A stretch of 64,000 nucleotides of DNA from Steromphala cineraria (Eukaryota > Mollusca > Gastropoda > Trochida > Trochidae), in NCBI GenBank assembly GCA_916613615.1, contig OU744725.1, positions 52,819,575 to 52,883,574 on the forward strand, read 5' to 3'. Positions 15,272 through 59,200 of the stretch are shown here, piece after piece (the first letter of the stretch is position 1; the number at the start of each line of letters is the position of its first letter). A program made the translations under genes and the position numbers. Under the pieces are notes generated by a model. It had not been told where the DNA came from. It saw only the letters and a program-made list of their open reading frames with translations, and made no database searches.

Positions 15272-15613
15272 TTAAAGGGGCAGTAGCACGTTTTATGGGG
15301 AATATAAGGTGATGTCAGGAAAATGAAAATTAATGGTTCCAATTGAAAGACAATGTTTTTAAACCAAATGACGCAATAATAATTCAAATATATAACGTAA
15401 TGTTTAGCGATGCGATTTCCTTTTCTTACACAAAATGAAGTAAAGGTGTTCACACAAAAATGGCTTCCAATTGACTTTATGTGAATCGTTGTAATTTGTT
15501 TTCTGACTATCTATGATTGGTTTGTAAAATTAGATTTTTGGCACTATCAAAATTATATATATAGCATTAACGAAAATATACAATTGTCCAAAAACGTGCT
15601 ACTGCCCCTTTAA
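15272..15613. mobile_element. 342-bp TTAA-bordered MITE, family A copy 1
   Basis: TTAA then AGGGGCAGTAGCACGTTTT at the left, and the complement AAAACGTGCTACTGCCCCT then TTAA at the right. The interior (GGTTCCAATTGAAAGACAAT, TTCACACAAAAATGGC) is shared with 43580-43941 and, inverted, with 49601-49925. TTAA target duplication suggests mobilisation by a piggyBac-like transposase. Confidence 0.85.
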
Positions 15614-20293: not shown

Positions 20294-20343
20294 CAAAATT
20301 ACGGAACCGTAGAGGGGACATTGCATGAGTTTAATTTTGAGAT

Positions 20344-20660
20344 TATTATGTCGTGGCCACGAGATAGTAAGTCGTGGCCACGAGATAATAAGTCGTGGCC
20401 ACGAGATAATAAGTCGTGGCCACGAGATAATAAGTCGTGGCCACGAGATATTAAGTCGTGGCCACGAGATATTAAGTCGTGGCCACGAGATATTAAGTCG
20501 TGGCCACGAGATATTAAGTCGTGGCCACGAGATATTAAGTCGTGGCCACGAGATATTAAGTCGTGGCCACGAGATATTAAGTCGTGGCCACGAGATATTA
20601 AGTCGTGGCCACGAGATCATATGTCGTGGCCACGAGATCATATGGCGTGGCTACGACTTA
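20344..20660. repeat. 21-bp palindromic satellite, left arm
   Basis: Fourteen clear units plus one degenerate, each 21 bp and containing the 12-bp perfect palindrome TCGTGGCCACGA. Linkers between palindromes vary: one GATAGTAAG, three GATAATAAG, eight GATATTAAG, two GATCATATG. The frames open through it in several registers only because the period is a multiple of three. Confidence 0.95.
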
Positions 20661-21249
20661 AGTTAACCAATAGATTTTCAGTATTAGTCGGCCATTTTGT
20701 TGAGAGATAAAACGTAGTAGAGAGGTTATGATTGGTGCTTTAAGCCCCTCAAAGAGGAGGGTAGGGGTGTAAGACCGAAAATAAATCTGGAGGTTTTGCT
20801 TCCCTCTTAATGAGGGTCATTTTATTCAAATTATAACCTCTCTGCAATGGCTATTATAACCAATTTATCAATTTTGGTTAGTGTGTGTGTTCTCCAAGAC
20901 AACCCTTTTATTTGAATAAAACGTTATCATTAGGTCTATGAAACCTATCCTACGCTGCTTGTCGTTCATATCTCATTTCTTATTCAATATTTCCTTTTAC
21001 GAGATACATAAAAGAGCACTACGCATATGATTTGTTGCAATAAAGAATGGTGTTTCCAAAAACATACTCAGTACGCAAATACTACGTACACTATCCAACA
21101 ATGTACAAAGTATATTTGATTTGGTTACTTTTTAAAGTATTCAATCAAAAAGGATTTATCAATAACCCATTAAAAAATTCACAATCACTTATAATAAACG
21201 TGCATATTATAACAACCGGTATAACCAGACTTAAACTTCTACCTATGTA

Positions 21250-22740
21250 ATACTTCGCCTTGCCCTAAACCTTTTTATTTCAGCCACCTTGGTCAGTAGT
21301 AAGATGGTCAACAACACATACAAATTGTAACACTTTAGATTGTTATCAATTTAAAGAAAATAAGATTCATAAACAAAAAAGTTTTCGAACCCGGAACCTC
21401 TGTGTTATCAAGCTACTTAATTACTTAAAACTCTTTCTACCCTAACCCTCTTTGTAAACCTCGGTTTCAATAACCCTCACCTAACCGTATACACAACTGT
21501 TACCACCCCAAACCCCGTACCCTCCAAATATCCCGTGTTTACATAAACTTACTTTATTGTATACCAAACCATAACCCTCGCCTTGCCCTATCCCTCTGGT
21601 TATTAGTCGGTTTCATTACACTCGCGTATACCAGAGTCTCTGCTTTGCCTTAACCCTCTTCGTAACTCTAGATTCCATAACCTTCCCTTAACAGTATACC
21701 TAACCCCTCGCTTTGGCTCAACTCCAACGTATCCTCGTTACCATAACCCTCGCTTTGCAAAATAAAAAATGTAACCCTCACGTTTCTCAATCAACCCTCC
21801 CCGCTTTCGTAACGCTTGTTTCCCATAAACTCGATAACCTAACTGTAGCCATCGCTCTAACCCTGTCCGTAACACTCGTTTTCATGCAGTTAGGTAGACG
21901 GTAATGCGATGGTTATGGACACGAGGGTTAAGATGAGGGTTAGTGTAAAGCAAGGGTTACAATAAGGTATACGCTAAAGCGAGGGTTATGAAACAAGGGT
22001 TACTAGAAGGTGAGGGCCAAGTGACGGATACAGCTAGGTATATTGTAAAGCAAAGCAAGGGGTGTAATGTTAGGCATAAGTGCTCAAAACACGCAGAATA
22101 CCTAACATTTGTGCGTATATCTAGAGCACTTGGCATGCAATAAAAGGGAGTGTGCCTAAGGGTTTAGAGCAAAGCGAAGGTTGCAGTTAGGTAGACGGTA
22201 ATGGAGGGTTATAAAAAGAGGTTTACTAAGAGGTATAGGGCAACGCAAGGGTTACAGTTAGGTAAACAATACAGCCAGGGTAAGGAAAACGAGAGTAGTG
22301 GAAGTAAGGGCAAAGCAAGTGTTACACTCAGTTTATGGATTCGTTAACACGAGGGTTAGGGAAAATGAGGGTTACAGTGAGATATACTAGTACTGTAAAG
22401 TGAGGGTAATAAAAACGAATAATACGTAGAAAGTTAGGACAAATGTGGTGTTATAATTAGATATATTGTTAAGGGAGGGTTAGGAAATCGAGGGTTACCT
22501 AAAGGATTAAAGATAGGGTAATTGGGTACCTGGGCCAAAACTAGGGACAAGTAAGATATACGGTAAATTGATGGTAATGGAAAAGAGGTTACGTAAGGGG
22601 TAAGCACACAGCGAGGGTTGCAGTTATACGGTAAAGTGAGGGTTGTTGAAACAAGGGGTAGAAGATTGTAAGGGCAAAGCGAGGGTAACAGTTAACTTTA
22701 CTGTAAAGCGAAGGTTATTATCTTGGATTGGAGTGTACTA
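21250..22740. repeat. Degenerate GAGGGTTA-type repeats in inverted halves
   Basis: Interior of the foldback element. From 21250 to about 21895 the plus strand is full of TAACCCTCGCTTTGC-like words. From about 21900 to 22740 it carries the complement, such as GCAAAGCGAGGGTTACAG and GTTAGGTATACGGTAAAG. The array is therefore split into two opposed halves with the turn near 21900. Period is irregular, about 20-35 bp. Confidence 0.8.
21376..21415 (-). repeat. Possible tRNA-derived SINE box B fragment
   Basis: The minus strand reads AGGTTCCGGGTTCGAA, close to a tRNA-type B box, preceded by GTAGCTTGATAACACAG. It does not fold as a full tRNA. Confidence 0.25.
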
Positions 22741-23414
22741 AGAAGGTGGTACAAATATATATTGGTACCTTCAGAAGTTGTTGTTGAAACAGTCTGATAG
22801 GTACTACACTATGGGGGGTATTTAATAACGATTTTTGGTACTTTACGGTATGACCGCCTCTATATGTATTATGACGGATGAACATCTTTATGTCTTGAAC
22901 TTCTTTTACATTTGCATTTGGATATTAACACTGATACGAGACTTTATAAATTGAACATTGGTTGATTGGATTAAAAGAATGATTAAATGATAAGAATAAT
23001 TATAGATACATGCTGTGCAGATAAATAGCTGCCACCCTTTTTTTATTGATATTCTGTACTCAATGTAAGCTATGCACAAGTATATTCTATAGAATGTATT
23101 CAAGTGGTATTTATGCATAAAAGACCATGCTGGGGTTTTTTGTTTGTTTTTTAAAAAGATTTATATATGTTTTATGCTAGTAAAGTGGTGTTTGGATGAA
23201 ATATATGATATAGATGCATGATAAATAGTTACTTTATAACATAACTTTTGATGAGTTAAACTTATATCAAGCAAAAGATATAGGCCTATATATATACACG
23301 AAAAATCCACAAGCACAACTTATATATTGATACTGCATATACAAACTGTAGAAGTATATATAAAGTGTACAGTAAACTTAAGGATTTTAATTGGTACTTC
23401 TGTATACTATAAAA
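22741..23414. other. Unpaired spacer of the foldback element
   Basis: AT-rich sequence between the inner GAGGGTTA array and the start of the right arm. It has no partner in the left half and no recognisable coding. Confidence 0.6.
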
Positions 23415-24029
23415 CACATGGGTGGTTATAACATGCATGTTTATTTTAAGTGATGGTGAATTTTTTAATGGGTTATTGATAAATCATTTTCGATTGAATA
23501 CTTTATAGATTAACCAAATTAAATATACTTGGTACGTTGTTGGACAATGTAGTATTTGTGCATACTGAGTACGTATTTTGGAAACACCATTCTTGGGATC
23601 CATCAATTAGCCTTGATTGGATTGGATAGGACTTCTATAAATCTTTCTTGTTGCAACAAATCATATGCGTAGTGCTCTTTTATGTATCTCGTAAAAGGAA
23701 ATATTGAATAAGAAATGAGATATGAACGACAAGCAGCGTAGGATAGGTTTCATAGACCTAATGATAACGTTTTATTCAAATAAAAGGGTTGTCTTGGAGA
23801 ACACACACACTAACCAAAATTGATAAATTGGTTATAATAGCCATTGCAGAGAGGTTATAATTTGAATAAAATGACCCTCATTAAGAGGGAAGCAGAACCT
23901 CCAGATTTATTTTCGGTCTTACACCCCTACCCTCCTCTTTGAGGGGCTTAAAGCACCAATCATAACCTCTCTACTACGTTTTATCTCTCAACAAAATGGC
24001 CGACTAATACTGAAAATCTATTGGTTAAC

Positions 24030-24300
24030 TAAGTCGTGGCCACGCCATATGATCTCGTGGCCACGACTTAATATCTCGTGGCCACGACTTAATATCTCGT
24101 GGCCACGACTTATTATCTCGTGGCCACGACTTATTATCTCGTGGCCACGACTTATTATCTCGTGGCCACGACTTATTATCTCGTGGCCACGACTTATTAT
24201 CTCGTGGCCACGACTTATTATCTCGTGGCCACGACTTATTATCTCGTGGCCACGACTTATTATCTCGTGGCCACGACTTACTATCTCGTGGCCACGACAT
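24030..24300. repeat. 21-bp palindromic satellite, right arm
   Basis: Inverted counterpart of the left array with twelve clear units plus one degenerate. Read outward to inward on the minus strand the linkers are one GATAGTAAG, eight GATAATAAG, two GATATTAAG, one GATCATATG. The order is the same as in the left arm, but the copy numbers of the two main variants differ strongly. Confidence 0.95.
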
Positions 24301-24354
24301 AATAATCTCAAAATTAAACTCATGCAATGTCCCCTCTACGGTTCCGTACAAAAT

Positions 24355-31655: not shown

Positions 31656-31921
31656 CAGTCTAAGTAAACCTAGCCTCACTATCATCCGTTACACTGCTAT
31701 ACTGAGTCTAACAAGGCTTGGTTGAGAGTCGCGTCAGCCCACGTGACCAAGTTGACCAATCAGAACTCAGTTTACCAAGCCACAATAGTGTGCCTTCGCA
31801 CGTTTAACGTTGGAAGGTCATAGGTCGCAGAAAGGTCGGCAGACGCGACCCTCAACCAAGCCTTGTTAGACTCAGTATAGCAGTGTAACGGATGATAGTG
31901 AGGCTAGGTTTACTTAGACTG
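31656..31921. mobile_element. 266-bp MITE with 80-bp TIRs and 10-bp target duplication
   Basis: Left arm 31656-31735 and right arm 31842-31921 are inverted copies with a single mismatch, beginning CAGTCTAAGTAAACCTAGCC. The direct repeat AATGTATGTA lies at 31646-31655 and 31922-31931. A 9-10-bp duplication with long TIRs is most like Mutator-type elements. The 106-bp centre is unpaired. Confidence 0.9.
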
Positions 31922-43579: not shown

Positions 43580-43941
43580 TTAAAGGGATATTAACACATT
43601 TTTAGGGGGATTATAAGGGGATGTCAGAAAAATTAAAATTAATGGTTCCAATTGAAAGACAATGTATTTAAACTAAATGGAGAATTATGATTCAAATATA
43701 TAACGTAAAGTTTAGCCATGCGATTCTTTTTTTTACACAAAATGAATTAAAGGTGTTCACACAAAATGGCCGCCAATGGATTTTATGTGAATCTTCATAC
43801 TTTGTCCTCTGACTATGGATGATTGGCTTGTGTAATGAGACTTTTGACACTGTCAAAATTATACATTTAGAATAAACTAACAATTATCAGTGAAAAGTTT
43901 AAAATATAAAATTGTCAAAAAGCGTGCTACTGCCCCTTTAA
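43580..43941. mobile_element. TTAA-bordered MITE, family A copy 2
   Basis: Same orientation as 15272-15613 with matching interior (GGTTCCAATTGAAAGACAAT). The left terminus is mutated (AGGGATATTAACACATTTTT), while the right CGTGCTACTGCCCCT-TTAA is intact. Confidence 0.8.
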
Positions 43942-49600: not shown

Positions 49601-49925
49601 AAAAGGGGCAGTAGCACGTTTTATGAAAATTTTATGTTTTCTATTTTTTACTGATAATTGTACATTAATGCTAAATGTATTATTTTTATAGTGTCAAAAA
49701 TCTCATTACACAAACCAATCATCCAAAATCTGAGAACAAATTATAAAGATTCACATATCGTCCATTGGCAGCCATTTTTGTGTTAACACCTTAAATTCAT
49801 TTTGTATAAGAAAAGGGAATCACATTGCAATTATTTGATTTATTACTGCCTCATTTAGGTTAAATACATTGTTTTTCAATTGGAACCATTTATTTTCCCC
49901 TGAAAATGTGCTACTGCTCCTTTAA
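49601..49925. mobile_element. TTAA-bordered MITE, family A copy 3 (inverted)
   Basis: AGGGGCAGTAGCACGTTTT at the left and TGTGCTACTGCTCCT-TTAA at the right. The interior is reverse-complemented relative to copies 1 and 2 (ATTGTTTTTCAATTGGAACC). The left border reads TAAA. Confidence 0.8.
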
Positions 49926-53288: not shown

Positions 53289-56200
53289 CTGAAAGAGAAA
53301 AAAATGATGGTTAATACAAGAAATGATGATACTGTGTTAATTGATGCATCAAGTCGAGATAATTGAACTGTCTTGGAAATAACCGGAATGACGCTCAGTG
53401 AAATAGGTTGTGGATAAAGTTACTAGGTAATTATTCTCGCATGTGCTATGTCTGATACCCTTGGCAGCAGATTTAGTTTTCTCTAGAACATCAATTACAC
53501 TTGAAATATGGTTATTAATGGTTAGTGATGAAAATCATCAACTCAAAGTAGTCAAAACTGACAACATGAAGAATAGTGATTAATATTAGCTTTTTAACAT
53601 AAAGAGGTTAAGGTATGTTATTAACCCTCCCGCTTGTGTTATTCTCAAATGGTTGACAGCTTAGTGAGATAGATTTATCATAAAGATATATTGAAATGAA
53701 TTGAACCAACATGTTCATTAATATGTAAACATCATTTTAAGATAAACTTGAAATTGAATCAATATAATAAATAATTAAAAAAACGTTTTTTTAATATTTT
53801 AGGATTCTTAGTGAAAATACATCAAGTGGTCCCTAGGTGTCAGTAGACAAAAATATCAAAAAGGTACGGAAATGATAAACTTTGAAGAAAATAGAATAAA
53901 ATTTAATAAGAAAGCTCATTCAAGTTGAAGGGTCCATGAATAAGACAATTAAAAATAAAAAAATAAAAAATAAATCAAATCAAATTAAATTAGAAAATAA
54001 ATTAATAAGGACAAAAGAAACTAGAATATAATTTAAATAAGAAAGTTAACAAACTAACAAAAAAAATAATAATGCTAAAATATTTTTTCATTATTCTGAT
54101 TTCTTGATTCAGAGAAGGTAAATGAGAGGACAAAATAAACCAAAGGTTTAGGAAAAATTGAAAATGTTACATATTACATACTTGAAGTCAATCAAGCTAT
54201 ACCAACTTTCTGATGGTTGACACTGTCAGCGAGGAGGGCTCTTTTGCTTGCACACGCATACATATCCGCCCCAACCCCCCAATCCTTGTCGGAGTATGTG
54301 TTATTGTTATTGTAGTGTGTTGCCCATTGCGATGTCTTGACAACGGGCACAGGAATACTGCCCATAACAGCTTGATGCTGCTGTTGAAGCTGTTTGTCAC
54401 AGGAAGGGCTGAAAGAAGATGAGGAATATCAGTGACACATCCAAAAGGGGTGTTGGGTCAGTACCCCTCCCAAGAGGGTTCTAAATATTGTACATGTTGA
54501 TAGTCATATTTTTTTTCAAGGGGATGTTGGGATGCGCACCCCTGAAAATAGTTCTAAATATTGTTATGTTGAGAGTCATATTTTTATTCAAGGGGATGTT
54601 GGGGTGCACACCCCTCCCAAGAGAGTTCTAAATATTGTAAATGTTGATAGTCATATTTTCATTCAAGGGGGTGAAGGGGTGCGCACCCCTCCCAAAGAGT
54701 TCTAAGTATTGTAAATGTTGAGAGTCATATTTTTAATTCAAGGGGGTGAAGGGGTGCGCACTCCTCCAAAACAAGCTCTCAATATTGTAAATGTTGAGAG
54801 TCATATCTTTCTTTCAAGGGGATAGTCATATCTTTCTTTCAAGGGGGTATTGTGGTGCGCACCCCTCCAAAATAGTTCTAAATATTGTAAATGTAAAAGA
54901 TGCATTTCTCATTTATAAAAATGCCTTCCTTAAGATTAACATTGATAAATCTATCAAACACATGCCACCCAAAAGAAAATTCTATTTCAATCCCTGTAAA
55001 TTCCTCAGTGTGTTAAAAGAGCATGATAAATCTTCTTACATTTCGATATGTTTTTATCAAATGATTCCAAAATGATTTCATGATAAACAATCCCTTAAAA
55101 ACATTAAACAATTAATGTTGATATTTTAATTTACATGTCATCATTGATTATAAAGGTCTATATTCTAAATAGGAAAAAAAAGTAGTCCCAATAATAACAT
55201 ATACTTACTTTGTATGAATTACAGATGCAGGAACTCCTGTAATTTTTGGACTTGTCCTTGTATTCGGTGTTCCAGAGGACATCTCTGATCCGCTAAGATC
55301 CGACTGAGCAGGACTTGTACCCCGATCTGAACCTGACCCGAGACTCCCTCGATGGTTATAGGCGGGGGGACCCTTCCCACAGTGTGCCCATGAGCTGCCG
55401 TTCATGTCTGGCTTGCTGGAACTGTTGGACATGACCGGTGCCATCGGACCCGAGAGAGAGATGTTTGGACTTGGACCAACACTTTTAATCACAGAACTAT
55501 CCCTGTGGTTGAGAGACTGATGAATCAGTTCTTGACCATTGACCACAGGATCTGGAGACACCTTGTCCAGTTTATTGTCTTTGGGGTAGTATCCCTGATT
55601 ATGGACCGACCTGAATAGGGTCGAGGAGGGGATACAGGGGGGAGCAACAGCGCCCTCTATAGTGTTCATGAAAGAATTTGCATTGTACACAGACGCTGAA
55701 CGGAGGTCCACAGGTTCCAGGGACCCGTTCAGACGAGGAGGGAACCGGTCATGATGAGGAAAATCATAACCAAACTTCCGAGAGTCATTTTCATAGTATG
55801 GTATCTCCTCACAAACACCTTTCTTGGCAAGATCGAACCCATACCCATAGTCCAAACCATACTTAGGAGCTGAGGAGATGATGTCTGCATAACCATTTGT
55901 AGGGTACGGTAGGGACGTTTGATATTGCCGCGGGTCGATGATATACCCATTTGAGAGTCCATGCTTCTCTGCGTCAAGTCGGTACGCATCTGAATTCGGG
56001 TACACAGATCCTGTGAGGGATCCATAAACATTGGATCGATAGATATCCGACTCATACCCGTAATTGTTTGGATACACAATGTCAGATTTGAACTCACTCG
56101 TGTCATAGTTGAAAGGAGGGTATCCTCCATAGGTACTGCACATATTGATTGGACACGCACCTTTCCGCTTCTTGGTATTCTGTGGGTATTCACGGCCTTG

Positions 56201-59200
56201 GGCTTTCTTCTTGTTTTTGTTTGGCTTCTTTGAGACTAGGTCATCCTCCGGGAAGCCAAACCCAGCACAAAGGTCCATGTCCAACAGAGGGTAGGGAAGT
56301 TTGAACTCATTTCCTCGCTTCCCGAACAAATCCTGTCCCTCATCATCACTGAAATGAGAATTATTCAGTATATATTGAAGACAGAATTTTCTTCATGATT
56401 TAATTGCCTTGCATGGTGTTCCTTTGGAATGTATCTTATTTGGTGTACTTTGAAGTAAAATATCACTTTTCATAAGAGTTAGAAAATATTTTTGATGTAG
56501 AGTAACCAAATTTTATAACTTAAATTGCCAAAATGTAATTTATCTTGTTATCTGTTATTTTTATTTTTGATTGTAGGCCTTTAGCAAATTTTATATGAAA
56601 TAAGATTTTAAACATTTTCTTTTAATTTGATATATTTCTTCGCCACTCTATACAATGATCATTGAAAGATCATCAAGAGATAAGATATATAAGCAGAAAA
56701 AATTAATGATGTCAATTGGTCCTAATACAAGAAAAATTTCAGAGCATAAATATACAATTTTCATAATGTTGAGGTCTGTTTTCCATATAGTGATATCTTT
56801 ATTTCCTTTATGAATTTTAATTTTCTTGTATGTTAATCATTTCTATGAGGAAATGATTTTTGAGATTATAAATTTTTTGCAACTCACGTGAGCTGTCGAT
56901 GTGTACAGATGATGAAGTCTGGTTTGCTGTTCTTGTAGATGACTTTACACGAAGACTGGAGCCACAACCAACGATACGATTTGGTCAACCAGCGGTAGGC
57001 GATGAGACCAGAACTACCCGTCTTTATCACTGAAAGTAGGAAATTATCAGTGAAAATTACAAATATCAGTGAATTATGCAAATATGAGTGAAATTTACAA
57101 AATCAATGAAACTTACAAATATCAGTGAAACTTACAAATATCAGTGAAATTAACAAACATTTGTGAAATTTACAAATATCAGTGAAATAATAAACATCAG
57201 TGAAATTCACAAATATCAGTGAAATTCACAAATATCAGTGAAATAATAAACATCAGTGAAATTCACAAATATCAGTGAAATTCACAAATATCAGTGAAAT
57301 TCACAATATCAGTGAAATTACAAACATCAATGAAATTTACAAATATCAAAATAAATAAAAAAATAAAATGTGGTCTTTAAAAATTGACTCTAAACTATGA
57401 TTTTCTTATGTTTGAGGACACAAGCTTTCATTATGATACATTAACAGTGTTGTTGTTGATTACCATCCTTCAATAGAAATCAAATTTTAAAATCAATCAG
57501 AGGACCTTATCCTTCCTTTTTAAACTAAAATATAAATCAAAGAAAATAATGTCTTCCAGCAAGGAAATAAAAATCTGAAATCTTGTTCTAATGAAGGTTT
57601 CAAGAATAAATATATTTAAACTTTTTTCCTTGAAATGAACACCTTGACCTTTATAAAGTTTCCAAAGACAAATTCTACATTATTCAAGCTTGCCAGCGAG
57701 TGAAGCAAGGAAAGATACAGTGAACATTACAGTCGGCCTGCTGTCCTCTTCTATGTGAAATTTAATTCTATATATTGACATTCGTAATCAGTTTCTGTCA
57801 CACGCGTGCCACTGGCGTAAATTAGTCGCGAATTGAGAGGACTCTGGATTTGAGAAACCAACACGTTAACGTATCATTTACCCTCAAAGACTCGAGCCCT
57901 CGGATGGCCGTTCCGTACACAAGAGACAATGGGATGTCATTATCAGTAACTATCCCGCCAATCAATGTAGTTGATCACTATCATGTACATAACATCAATC
58001 AAATATGCACAGTGCTGTGTTTCTCTCAAATTTATGACTCGGGTTGAATTTCCTATGAACGTTGCTTATGGATCCTTTGATTGCTGTACAAAGTGTTGGA
58101 TCTTCTTTGACAATGAATACCTATCTGGGATGTAATTTAGCTAAAAGAGCTCCCCGTCCTTACATGTGAGATTGAAATCGATTTGTGTTAATAGCCTGTC
58201 TATTTCAAAGTGAAATGGAAATCTTTGGCAAAATGATGCTTAAGATCAGTTTTTTTCATAATGTAAAATTTTTTAATAAAACATATCTTGATATTTAGTC
58301 AAATGTGACATTGTTCACAAAATAATGTTACAAAAGACACATTTTCATTATCAATTTTTGAAAGAAACATTAAAAATCTGACATTTTTCATCTTTTACTA
58401 TAAAACTGTCCTTAACAGGCATAATTTTAAGGTTTGCATTACCAGTAAATATTCTATAATTGTTCTTACAGGAAACATCAACATATAGCCTCACCAGAAA
58501 TATTTTAATAACCCATCCATTTCTTGGAATATTTCCAAAATCGCCAATACAAGGATATTTACAAGAAAGCCCTGTACCAGAATATTTCTAAACATAGCAG
58601 TTACAAGGATATTTTCAAGATAGCTCTACAGGAATATTTCAAATATCGCCCTTACCATGATTATTTTCAAGATTATTATATAATTTCAATAAAATTCTTG
58701 TTTACAATCTTTACATTATAGCTTTTATTACAAGAAATATTTTCAAGAAAGTTGTAACCAGGGATATTTTCAAGACAGCCCATAAAGGATATATAAGGAT
58801 AAAGGATTTAAAAATATATCCCTAGCCAGGCATATATTAAAGTTAGCCTCTACCAGGAATATTTTGAATATCCCCTTACAATGAGGTTTATGAGACAGCA
58901 ACTGCCAGGGTTATTTCCAATAAAAATCTTTTTTGCAAAAATTAAATTATGGTCAATTCAAGGAATATTTTCAAGAAAGCCTTTACCAAGAATATTTCAA
59001 AGGTGGGCCCTGCAAATAAAAATTTAAAAACAGCCACTCCAAGGAATAATTCAAATTCTAAAAAAAAAATTTATTTCAGTGTCTGTCTTAGGAGGATTAA
59101 ACAGAGAATGGTCTTGCAAGTATGAGTTCAGCATTCATAGGGGTAGTTTGAAAAAATATTTAAAAAAAAAAAATTAAAAAATCAAAAACAATTTAAGACA

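What the first reader, a model, noticed from the sequence alone, without database searches (positions are those of the whole stretch)
20300..24348. Foldback element whose arms are palindrome-core satellites
The ends are exact inverted copies (TACGGAACCGTAGAGGGGAC) with CAAAAT directly repeated outside both, so it looks like a discrete inserted unit. Arms are ~930 bp. Each contains an array of a 21-bp unit built on a perfect 12-bp palindrome, so the element is palindromic both as a whole and within every repeat. No transposase is present. I do not recognise this architecture as a named family.
Basis: seen in the sequence. Interest (0 to 1): 0.8.

Follow-up and report, generated by a model that had tools for sequence, protein, structure and literature searches.

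The report
Foldback jumping gene with palindromic arrays
This is a mobile DNA element in a clam-like animal that has no transposase of its own, and its unusual rows of small palindromes resemble those of transposase-carrying relatives, which suggests that they are landing sites for the enzyme that moves it.

Summary
In detail: 20300-24348 is a discrete inserted unit with a 6-bp duplication (CAAAAT), ~920-930-bp inverted arms and 21-bp units built on the palindrome TCGTGGCCACGA. It is one of a mobile family. A 30-base terminus (up to 3 mismatches) occurs 75+79 times in the 1.27-Gb genome (control 0+0), and 21 of 29 paired copies have an exact 6-bp duplication, none longer. Termini TACGG..CCGTA with 6-bp duplications match the published signature of IS3EU transposons. 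Upstream of integrase-type (PF24764) transposase genes in this genome lie 20/21-bp arrays with group-specific palindromic cores in 16 of 18 loci examined (of 37 matches), 15 with a TACGGAA terminus. Two 32-33-kb elements around such genes have exact 6-bp duplications. The window family is closest to one group (core TCGTGCGCACGA). Best reading: a non-autonomous foldback IS3EU element whose arrays are probably dimeric transposase binding sites, two helical turns apart; that role is inferred, not shown. 'Foldback' is a named architecture. My nine paper searches found no account of such arrays in IS3EU.

The parts
20294..20299 (.). left copy of the 6-bp target site duplication CAAAAT
   Evidence: sequence; exact 6-bp duplications in 21 of 29 paired copies
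20300..20350 (+). left terminal segment, TACGGAACCGTAGAGGGGAC... up to the first palindrome (51 bp)
   Evidence: terminus repeated genome-wide
20351..20656 (+). left subterminal array: 15 units of 21 bp = 12-bp palindrome TCGTGGCCACGA + 9-bp spacer
20657..21217 (+). inner part of the left arm; homologous to the inverted right arm (near-identical to ~21047, then 87.5%)
21448..22381 (.). degenerate internal palindrome; ~71-bp GAGGGTTA-rich repeats at about 22140-22718
22725..23300 (.). middle segment used to orient copies
23421..24033 (-). inner part of the right arm
24034..24297 (-). right subterminal array: 13 units of 21 bp with the same palindromic core
24298..24348 (-). right terminal segment (51 bp), inverted copy of the left one
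24349..24354 (.). right copy of the 6-bp target site duplication CAAAAT

Best explanation
A non-autonomous foldback member of the IS3EU superfamily (eukaryotic cut-and-paste transposons with an IS3/IS481-like DDE transposase), moved in trans by a transposase encoded elsewhere. The arrays are most likely family-specific transposase binding sites. A homodimer of the transposase's N-terminal helix-turn-helix would recognise the palindrome. The 21-bp period (two helical turns) would put the sites on one face of the DNA, so that a cluster of transposase loads each end for synapsis. In transposase-bearing relatives the array lies within about 45-90 bp of the presumed start codon, so it may also autoregulate the gene. 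Shown: repeated termini, 6-bp duplications, shared array architecture, related transposases. Inferred: trans-mobilisation, binding, phasing, autoregulation. Because a palindromic core is both a direct and an inverted repeat of the others, recombination or template switching between the ends could explain array-length variation, 113-115-bp 'terminus-core-terminus' minis and the foldback arms (inferred).
For: Family: 30-base terminus (<=3 mismatches) 75 fwd/79 rev, control 0/0; 21 of 29 paired copies with an exact 6-bp duplication, 2 more with one mismatch, none with 7; wrongly paired flanks agree in 5 of 812. IS3EU signature: 6-bp TSD and TAYGG..CCRTA (PMC12730594, passage); TA..TA termini, usually 6-bp TSD (PMC10045372, passage). 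Relatives: 16 of 18 PF24764 loci examined have a 20/21-bp array with a palindromic core upstream of the gene, 15 with a TACGGAA terminus. Two 31.9- and 33.5-kb elements around such a gene have matching ends, arrays from +48/49 and exact TSDs; 9 of 10 family-2 elements have exact TSDs. Their protein matches PF24764 and, below the curated cut-offs, IS3 (2.3e-08) and IS481 (3.2e-09) models. The window core differs from group C's at two central bases, and 18 of the first 22 terminal bases agree (12-15 for the others). Operator sense: 334 of 355 in-register cores exact; first core at +52 in 53 of 58 ends. TTGAA-core groups are sisters in the transposase tree (UFBoot 99), TCCTA groups cluster (78). 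N-terminal three-helix domain modelled at pLDDT ~90. Precedent: Galileo transposase binds repeats in its TIRs (PMC3688188, passages).
Against: No window-family copy read here encodes a PF24764 transposase (0 of 40 loci L001-L040 and the window), so the mobiliser is not identified; 19 of the 37 PF24764 matches were not examined. No binding was tested, and unit identity can also be kept by unequal exchange. 2 of 18 loci (L053, L058; more distant proteins) had no array; L057 had an array but no terminus in the stretch fetched. Perfect 12-bp dyads are the consensus only in the window family, C, B and family 2; group G's consensus is perfect over 10 bp, group D (TTGAAaaTTCAA) is imperfect, and group H's 21-bp array reads TCGTTATTACGA. 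Even in C and B exact cores are 16 of 26 and 38 of 69 counted units. Groups C and H share TCGT but do not cluster. First-core offset is 31, 41/42, 47-49, 51-53 (62 in one mini), so phasing to the end is not strict. The spacer motif is shared with B and family 2, so it does not single out group C. 6 of 29 paired copies lack a duplication. Foldseek TM-scores are low (about 0.3 or less to the query).
Confidence: 0.76

Rival explanations
1. Non-autonomous IS3EU foldback element as above, but the arrays are passive: short satellites that arose and expanded by slippage or hairpin-aided template switching and are tolerated, with no binding role.
For: Array length varies widely (2-18 in-register units per arm outside the minis), even between copies whose compared arm stretch is identical (left arms of L005 with 5 units and L013 with 7). 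Foldback TIR arrays can seed satellites (Tetris, PMC4079207, passages). Cores of several groups are imperfect in many units.
Against: Passive satellites need not keep a 20/21-bp period, a dyad core and a position near the terminus and transposase start in several groups with different cores. Four groups have a perfect 12-bp dyad as consensus; a random 21-bp unit would have one at roughly 0.5% (my arithmetic). In the window family, cores vary less than the six quiet spacer positions, chosen after seeing the data (about 0.5% against 1.3% per site).
Confidence: 0.24
2. A Foldback element of the Mutator or P (Galileo) type, as in Drosophila Galileo and Tetris.
For: Same overall anatomy: long inverted arms, subterminal tandem repeats, no coding capacity (PMC4079207, PMC3688188; passages).
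Against: Duplications are exactly 6 bp in the 21 copies with an exact one, not the 8-10 bp reported for Tetris. TACGG..CCGTA termini and related transposase-bearing elements point to IS3EU.
Confidence: 0.03
3. The arrays serve mainly as host-factor or promoter/operator sites at the transposase gene, and the non-autonomous element merely inherited them with the ends.
For: Arrays lie within about 45-90 bp of the presumed transposase ATG in groups B, C, D, G and H. Family 2 keeps a second array (about 18 units in the C4 copy, 8 in C44) next to its internal transposase gene.
Against: Non-autonomous copies without a gene keep arrays at both ends at a near-constant distance from the terminus, which fits an end-recognition role better.
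Confidence: 0.15

Closest known systems
IS3EU superfamily (Repbase; PMC10045372, PMC12730594, passages)
   Same: TACGG..CCGTA termini, 6-bp duplications; related elements encode a DDE transposase that resembles IS3 and IS481
   Different: The passages read describe TA..TA ends, 6-bp TSDs and (fungal set) TIRs over 30 bp, and mention no palindromic subterminal arrays; the window copy is a foldback without transposase
Galileo (P superfamily foldback, Drosophila; PMC3688188, passages)
   Same: long inverted arms with internal tandem repeats, shown there to carry transposase (THAP) binding sites
   Different: different transposase and termini; four long direct repeats rather than 21-bp palindromic units
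Tetris / DAIBAM (Drosophila virilis foldback; PMC4079207, passages)
   Same: non-autonomous foldback with tandem repeats in the arms
   Different: ~220-bp units, 8-10-bp duplications, assigned to Mutator by its authors
GingerRoot (as described in PMC10045372, passage)
   Same: 6-bp duplications, mostly TA..TA ends; not separated from IS3EU in that paper's tree
   Different: described from a clubmoss; no sequence could be compared here
Tn7/CAST TnsB and IS21 IstA (fold relatives)
   Same: DDE transposases of the integrase kind; TnsB binds several ~20-bp sites at each end (recalled, not from a call)
   Different: bacterial; few sites rather than long arrays; model match is weak (TM about 0.3)

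Membership tests
IS3EU | 6-bp target site duplication | tested here: met
   21 of 29 paired window-family copies exact; 9 of 10 family-2 elements
IS3EU | termini TA..TA, in one fungal set TAYGG..CCRTA | tested here: met
   window copy TACGG..CCGTA with CAAAAT outside; other copies were picked by this terminus, so they add only the adjoining duplications; relatives TACGGAAGC
IS3EU | terminal inverted repeats longer than 30 bp (fungal set) | tested here: met
   51-bp terminal segments plus arms
IS3EU | encodes an IS3-like DDE transposase (autonomous members) | tested here: inconclusive
   not in the window or the 40 fetched loci of its family; met in related families with the same architecture
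IS3EU | sequence match to Repbase IS3EU consensus | not testable with these tools
   Repbase not held
Foldback architecture (Galileo/Tetris type) | long inverted arms with subterminal tandem repeats | tested here: met
Mutator-type foldback | 8-10-bp duplication as in Tetris | tested here: not met
   6 bp only
Mobile family (versus single-copy palindrome) | many copies, common ends, different flanks | tested here: met
   among the 29 paired copies, flanks resembled each other only between L003 and L010 and in the cluster L021b/L022

The most novel reading that the evidence does not exclude
IS3EU transposons carry, at both ends and at the transposase promoter, arrays of palindromic operators spaced two helical turns apart, whose core sequence co-diverges with the transposase's DNA-binding domain. 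The operator array is thus a lineage-specific address code, and its palindromy also generates foldbacks and minis by strand switching.
Probability: 0.45. Interest if true: 0.72.

Novelty: new variant of a known kind. Interest (0 to 1): 0.58.

Why it matters
It links a puzzling foldback to a sparsely studied transposon superfamily and offers that superfamily a structural hallmark, at least in this genome. If the arrays are transposase operators, one genome holds six transposase groups each with its own array: a natural test of how transposases and their ends co-evolve, why some transposons carry satellite-like arrays, and how foldbacks and satellites are born. It also gives a search rule (TACGGAA end, then a 21-bp array on a palindromic core) for other animals.

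Tried and rejected
Two DNA patterns of the window family in viral contigs: no match. PF24764 relatives in viral contigs: none confirmed. Rfam and tRNA scans of the window: none. A possible transposase-bearing window-family copy on C37 (terminus at 35170336, weak PF24764 match 27 kb away) was followed and rejected: the 8-kb stretch around and beyond the match had no window-family terminus or array. A 12.4-kb terminus pair on C7 (22553132-22565555) was not read. Longer copies (L003, L016, L029, L030, L039, L040) appear to owe their length to inserts; open frames that looked like nested LINE, Tc1/mariner or Harbinger fragments were judged by eye, not by a family search. The array translation finds weak relatives elsewhere (P0015, E 3.7e-11; P0016 and P0017 at 0.05-0.07); their hosts were not identified, so no spread is claimed. 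Frequent homogenisation of the two arms within a copy was rejected: 0 of 48 arms has its own opposite arm as nearest neighbour, and in other lineages arms differ by up to 9.7% while the same arm can be identical between copies; the window's sublineage has near-identical arms. A search for group C termini never got an answer. 9.9 kb inside the 33.5-kb element had no ORF of 110 aa or more.
Full report
What is there. The window is from a mollusc, probably a bivalve: a long exon at 55208-56392 (-) matches proteins of Tegillarca (44%) and Sinanodonta (39%), and more distantly an Acanthosepion protein named AHR. The window lies at G000:C6:52819575-52883574 of a 1.27-Gb assembly. The element spans 20300-24348, flanked by CAAAAT on both sides. 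Each end has a 51-bp terminal segment, then 15 (left) or 13 (right) units of 21 bp built on TCGTGGCCACGA, then ~560 (left) or ~610 bp (right) of further arm, then an interior that contains a degraded palindrome and GAGGGTTA-rich repeats. The window has one TAYGG..CCRTA pair with a 6-bp duplication, this one; 50 Markov-random sequences averaged 0.64 such pairs, none with an inverted repeat of 10 bp or more.

A mobile family. The 20-base terminus (up to 3 mismatches) occurs 102+103 times in the genome (control 9+10) and a 30-base version (up to 3 mismatches) 75+79 times (control 0+0). I fetched 40 loci from the first 100 listed places. 28 had paired ends; 12 did not (3 of these 12 had only a 4-mismatch partner and no duplication). 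With the window copy, 21 of 29 paired copies have exact 6-bp duplications, two have one mismatch and six have more; no exact duplication extends to 7 bp; wrongly paired flanks agree in 5 of 812. The duplicated hexamers mostly differ (19 different in 21). Two of the pairs are minis of 115 and 113 bp that consist of terminus, one palindrome, inverted terminus. Outside the minis and L016, which has no array at its ends, arms hold 2 to 18 in-register units. The first core starts at +52 in 53 of 58 ends, at +51 or +53 in three, and is absent there in the two ends of L016; spacing is 21 bp with few exceptions. In 355 in-register units, 334 cores are exact; spacer variation is concentrated at three of nine positions. 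The first 20 bases were exact by selection of the copies (L037 has one mismatch at one end).

Arms. Across 48 arms, none has its own opposite arm as nearest neighbour. In several lineages the two arms differ by up to 9.7% while the same arm can be identical between copies; the window's sublineage (L008, L019, L023, L026 and the window) has arms 0.5-1.3% apart. So the arms normally evolve apart and were homogenised in the lineage that gave rise to the window copy (inference).

Superfamily. Termini TAYGG..CCRTA with 6-bp duplications are given for fungal IS3EU in PMC12730594, and TA..TA termini with usually 6-bp duplications for IS3EU in PMC10045372 (passages read). The genome has 37 PF24764 (integrase core, rva_4) matches. 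I examined 18 of these 37, mainly higher-scoring ones, on the upstream side of the gene. In 16 of 18 a tandem array of period 20-21 with a palindromic core lies upstream; in 15 a TACGGAA terminus stands outside an array (three of these are family 2, whose termini were read; for L064 the terminus belongs to a second, group-D-type array further out). L057 has an array without a visible terminus in the stretch fetched. L053 and L058 have neither; their proteins are more distant. Cores by group: TCGTGCGCACGA (C: L051, L055, L056, L060), TTGAAATTTCAA (B: L050, L062, L063, L064), TTGAAaaTTCAA, imperfect (D: L052, L059, L061, outer array of L064), TCCTACGTAGGA (family 2: L041-L043), CCTAATTAGG, with TCCTAATTAGGA in five units (G: L065), and TCGTAATTACGA in three units but TCGTTATTACGA in the main 21-bp array (H: L057). 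Exact cores among in-register units: C 16 of 26, B 38 of 69, D 41 of 49, G 2 of 9, H 0 of 3. As background, the only arrays of period 20-22 with four or more copies in the 64-kb window are the element's own two.

Transposase carriers with both ends. The family-2 terminus (up to 3 mismatches) occurs 226+245 times (control 0+0). Two exact inverted pairs, 31.9 kb on C37 and 33.5 kb on C44, enclose the PF24764 gene, have arrays from +48/49 at both ends and exact 6-bp duplications (GATTAT, TTATAT). Their interiors were read only in part. Of 10 family-2 elements checked at both ends, 9 have exact 6-bp duplications, including minis of 189 and 201 bp; one 2.8-kb pair does not. In this family a second array lies just upstream of the internal transposase gene, bounded by inverted copies that include the gene's presumed first codons. 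The encoded protein matches PF24764 and, below the curated cut-offs, IS3 (E 2.3e-08) and IS481 (3.2e-09) transposase models. D129, D188 and E228 are invariant in a 29-sequence alignment. An AlphaFold model (mean pLDDT 72, pTM 0.45) has an N-terminal three-helix stretch at about 90; Foldseek's best hits are IstA, TnsB and MuA, with low TM-scores. PDB sequence search found nothing.

Link to the window element. Group C is closest: 18 of the first 22 terminal bases agree (12-15 for the other groups) and the cores differ only at the two central bases. The window's commonest spacer GATATTAAG (8 of 14 on the left) is the reverse complement of CTTAATATC, the second commonest of group C (9 of 26; CTTAGTATC 10 of 26), but CTTAGTATC also occurs in B and family 2, so the spacer shows common descent of the arrays rather than a special tie to C. 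Arrays align at about 80% with group C's L055. No PF24764 coding sequence was found in the window or in the 40 window-family loci, so the mobiliser is inferred to act in trans.

How it probably works. Shown: repeated ends, duplications, arrays, related transposases. Inferred: dimeric recognition of each palindrome by the N-terminal helix-turn-helix; in-phase loading because 21 bp is two helical turns; synapsis of the two loaded ends; cut-and-paste with a 6-bp stagger; possible autoregulation where the array adjoins the transposase start. Support for recognition is comparative and partial: the two TTGAA groups are sister in the transposase tree (UFBoot 99) and the two TCCTA groups cluster together with an abalone relative (78), whereas the two TCGT groups do not cluster (9 own rows and 27 of 28 homologues, one dropped for length). 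Galileo is the precedent for transposase binding to arm repeats (PMC3688188, passages). The palindromic core makes every unit both a direct and an inverted repeat of every other, which would favour array-length change, end-to-end deletion to minis and inverted duplication to foldbacks; the inverted gene-start copies beside the internal family-2 array look like such an event (inference).

Literature. Nine paper searches, of which I saw listings, and passages of six papers gave no description of palindromic subterminal arrays in IS3EU; the library lacks most subscription papers, and Repbase is not held. In the oyster satellitome (PMC8268682, passages) two satellites are annotated IS3EU and one 21-bp satellite (CgiSat43) has no Repbase annotation; whether it is such an array is unknown.

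Verdict. A real, mobile-looking, non-autonomous foldback of the IS3EU kind; the surprising part is not the foldback but that operator-like arrays on palindromic cores are a shared, group-specific feature of these transposons in this genome.

Noticed in passing
G000:C37:55177787-55209694 and G000:C44:10537466-10570960: Two 32-33-kb transposons with exact ends, arrays and 6-bp duplications around a PF24764 transposase gene. About 9.9 kb of one interior (L084) has no ORF of 110 aa or more.
   Followed up: partly
L041:3037-3586: Array of 21-bp units upstream of a transposase start, bounded by 80-bp inverted copies that include the presumed first codons of the gene: looks like an inverted duplication at the array.
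   Followed up: partly
window 31656-31921: Hairpin-like element, 81% self-complementary over ~270 bp, with a 10-bp direct repeat AATGTATGTA outside: probably a MITE.
   Followed up: no
window 15272-15577, 43580-43939, 49602-49897: Three dispersed copies (80-84% alike) of a ~250-300-bp repeat, one inverted relative to the others.
   Followed up: no
window 55208-56392 (-): Long exon matching bivalve PAS-domain proteins (one distant hit named AHR), a host gene about 31 kb from the element.
   Followed up: partly
G000:C38:39164645-39176676 (L021, L022): Cluster of adjoining window-family copies, probably nested or rearranged; no 6-bp duplications at the two pairs checked.
   Followed up: no
L064:380-1420: Group-D-type terminus and array lie just outside a group-B-type array at a group-B transposase gene: a nested or hybrid end.
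   Followed up: no
P0015 (139 aa, ENA contig): Predicted protein from another source whose end reads as the same 7-residue repeat (SWPRDxK) that the window array encodes, so a similar array probably exists in another genome.
   Followed up: no
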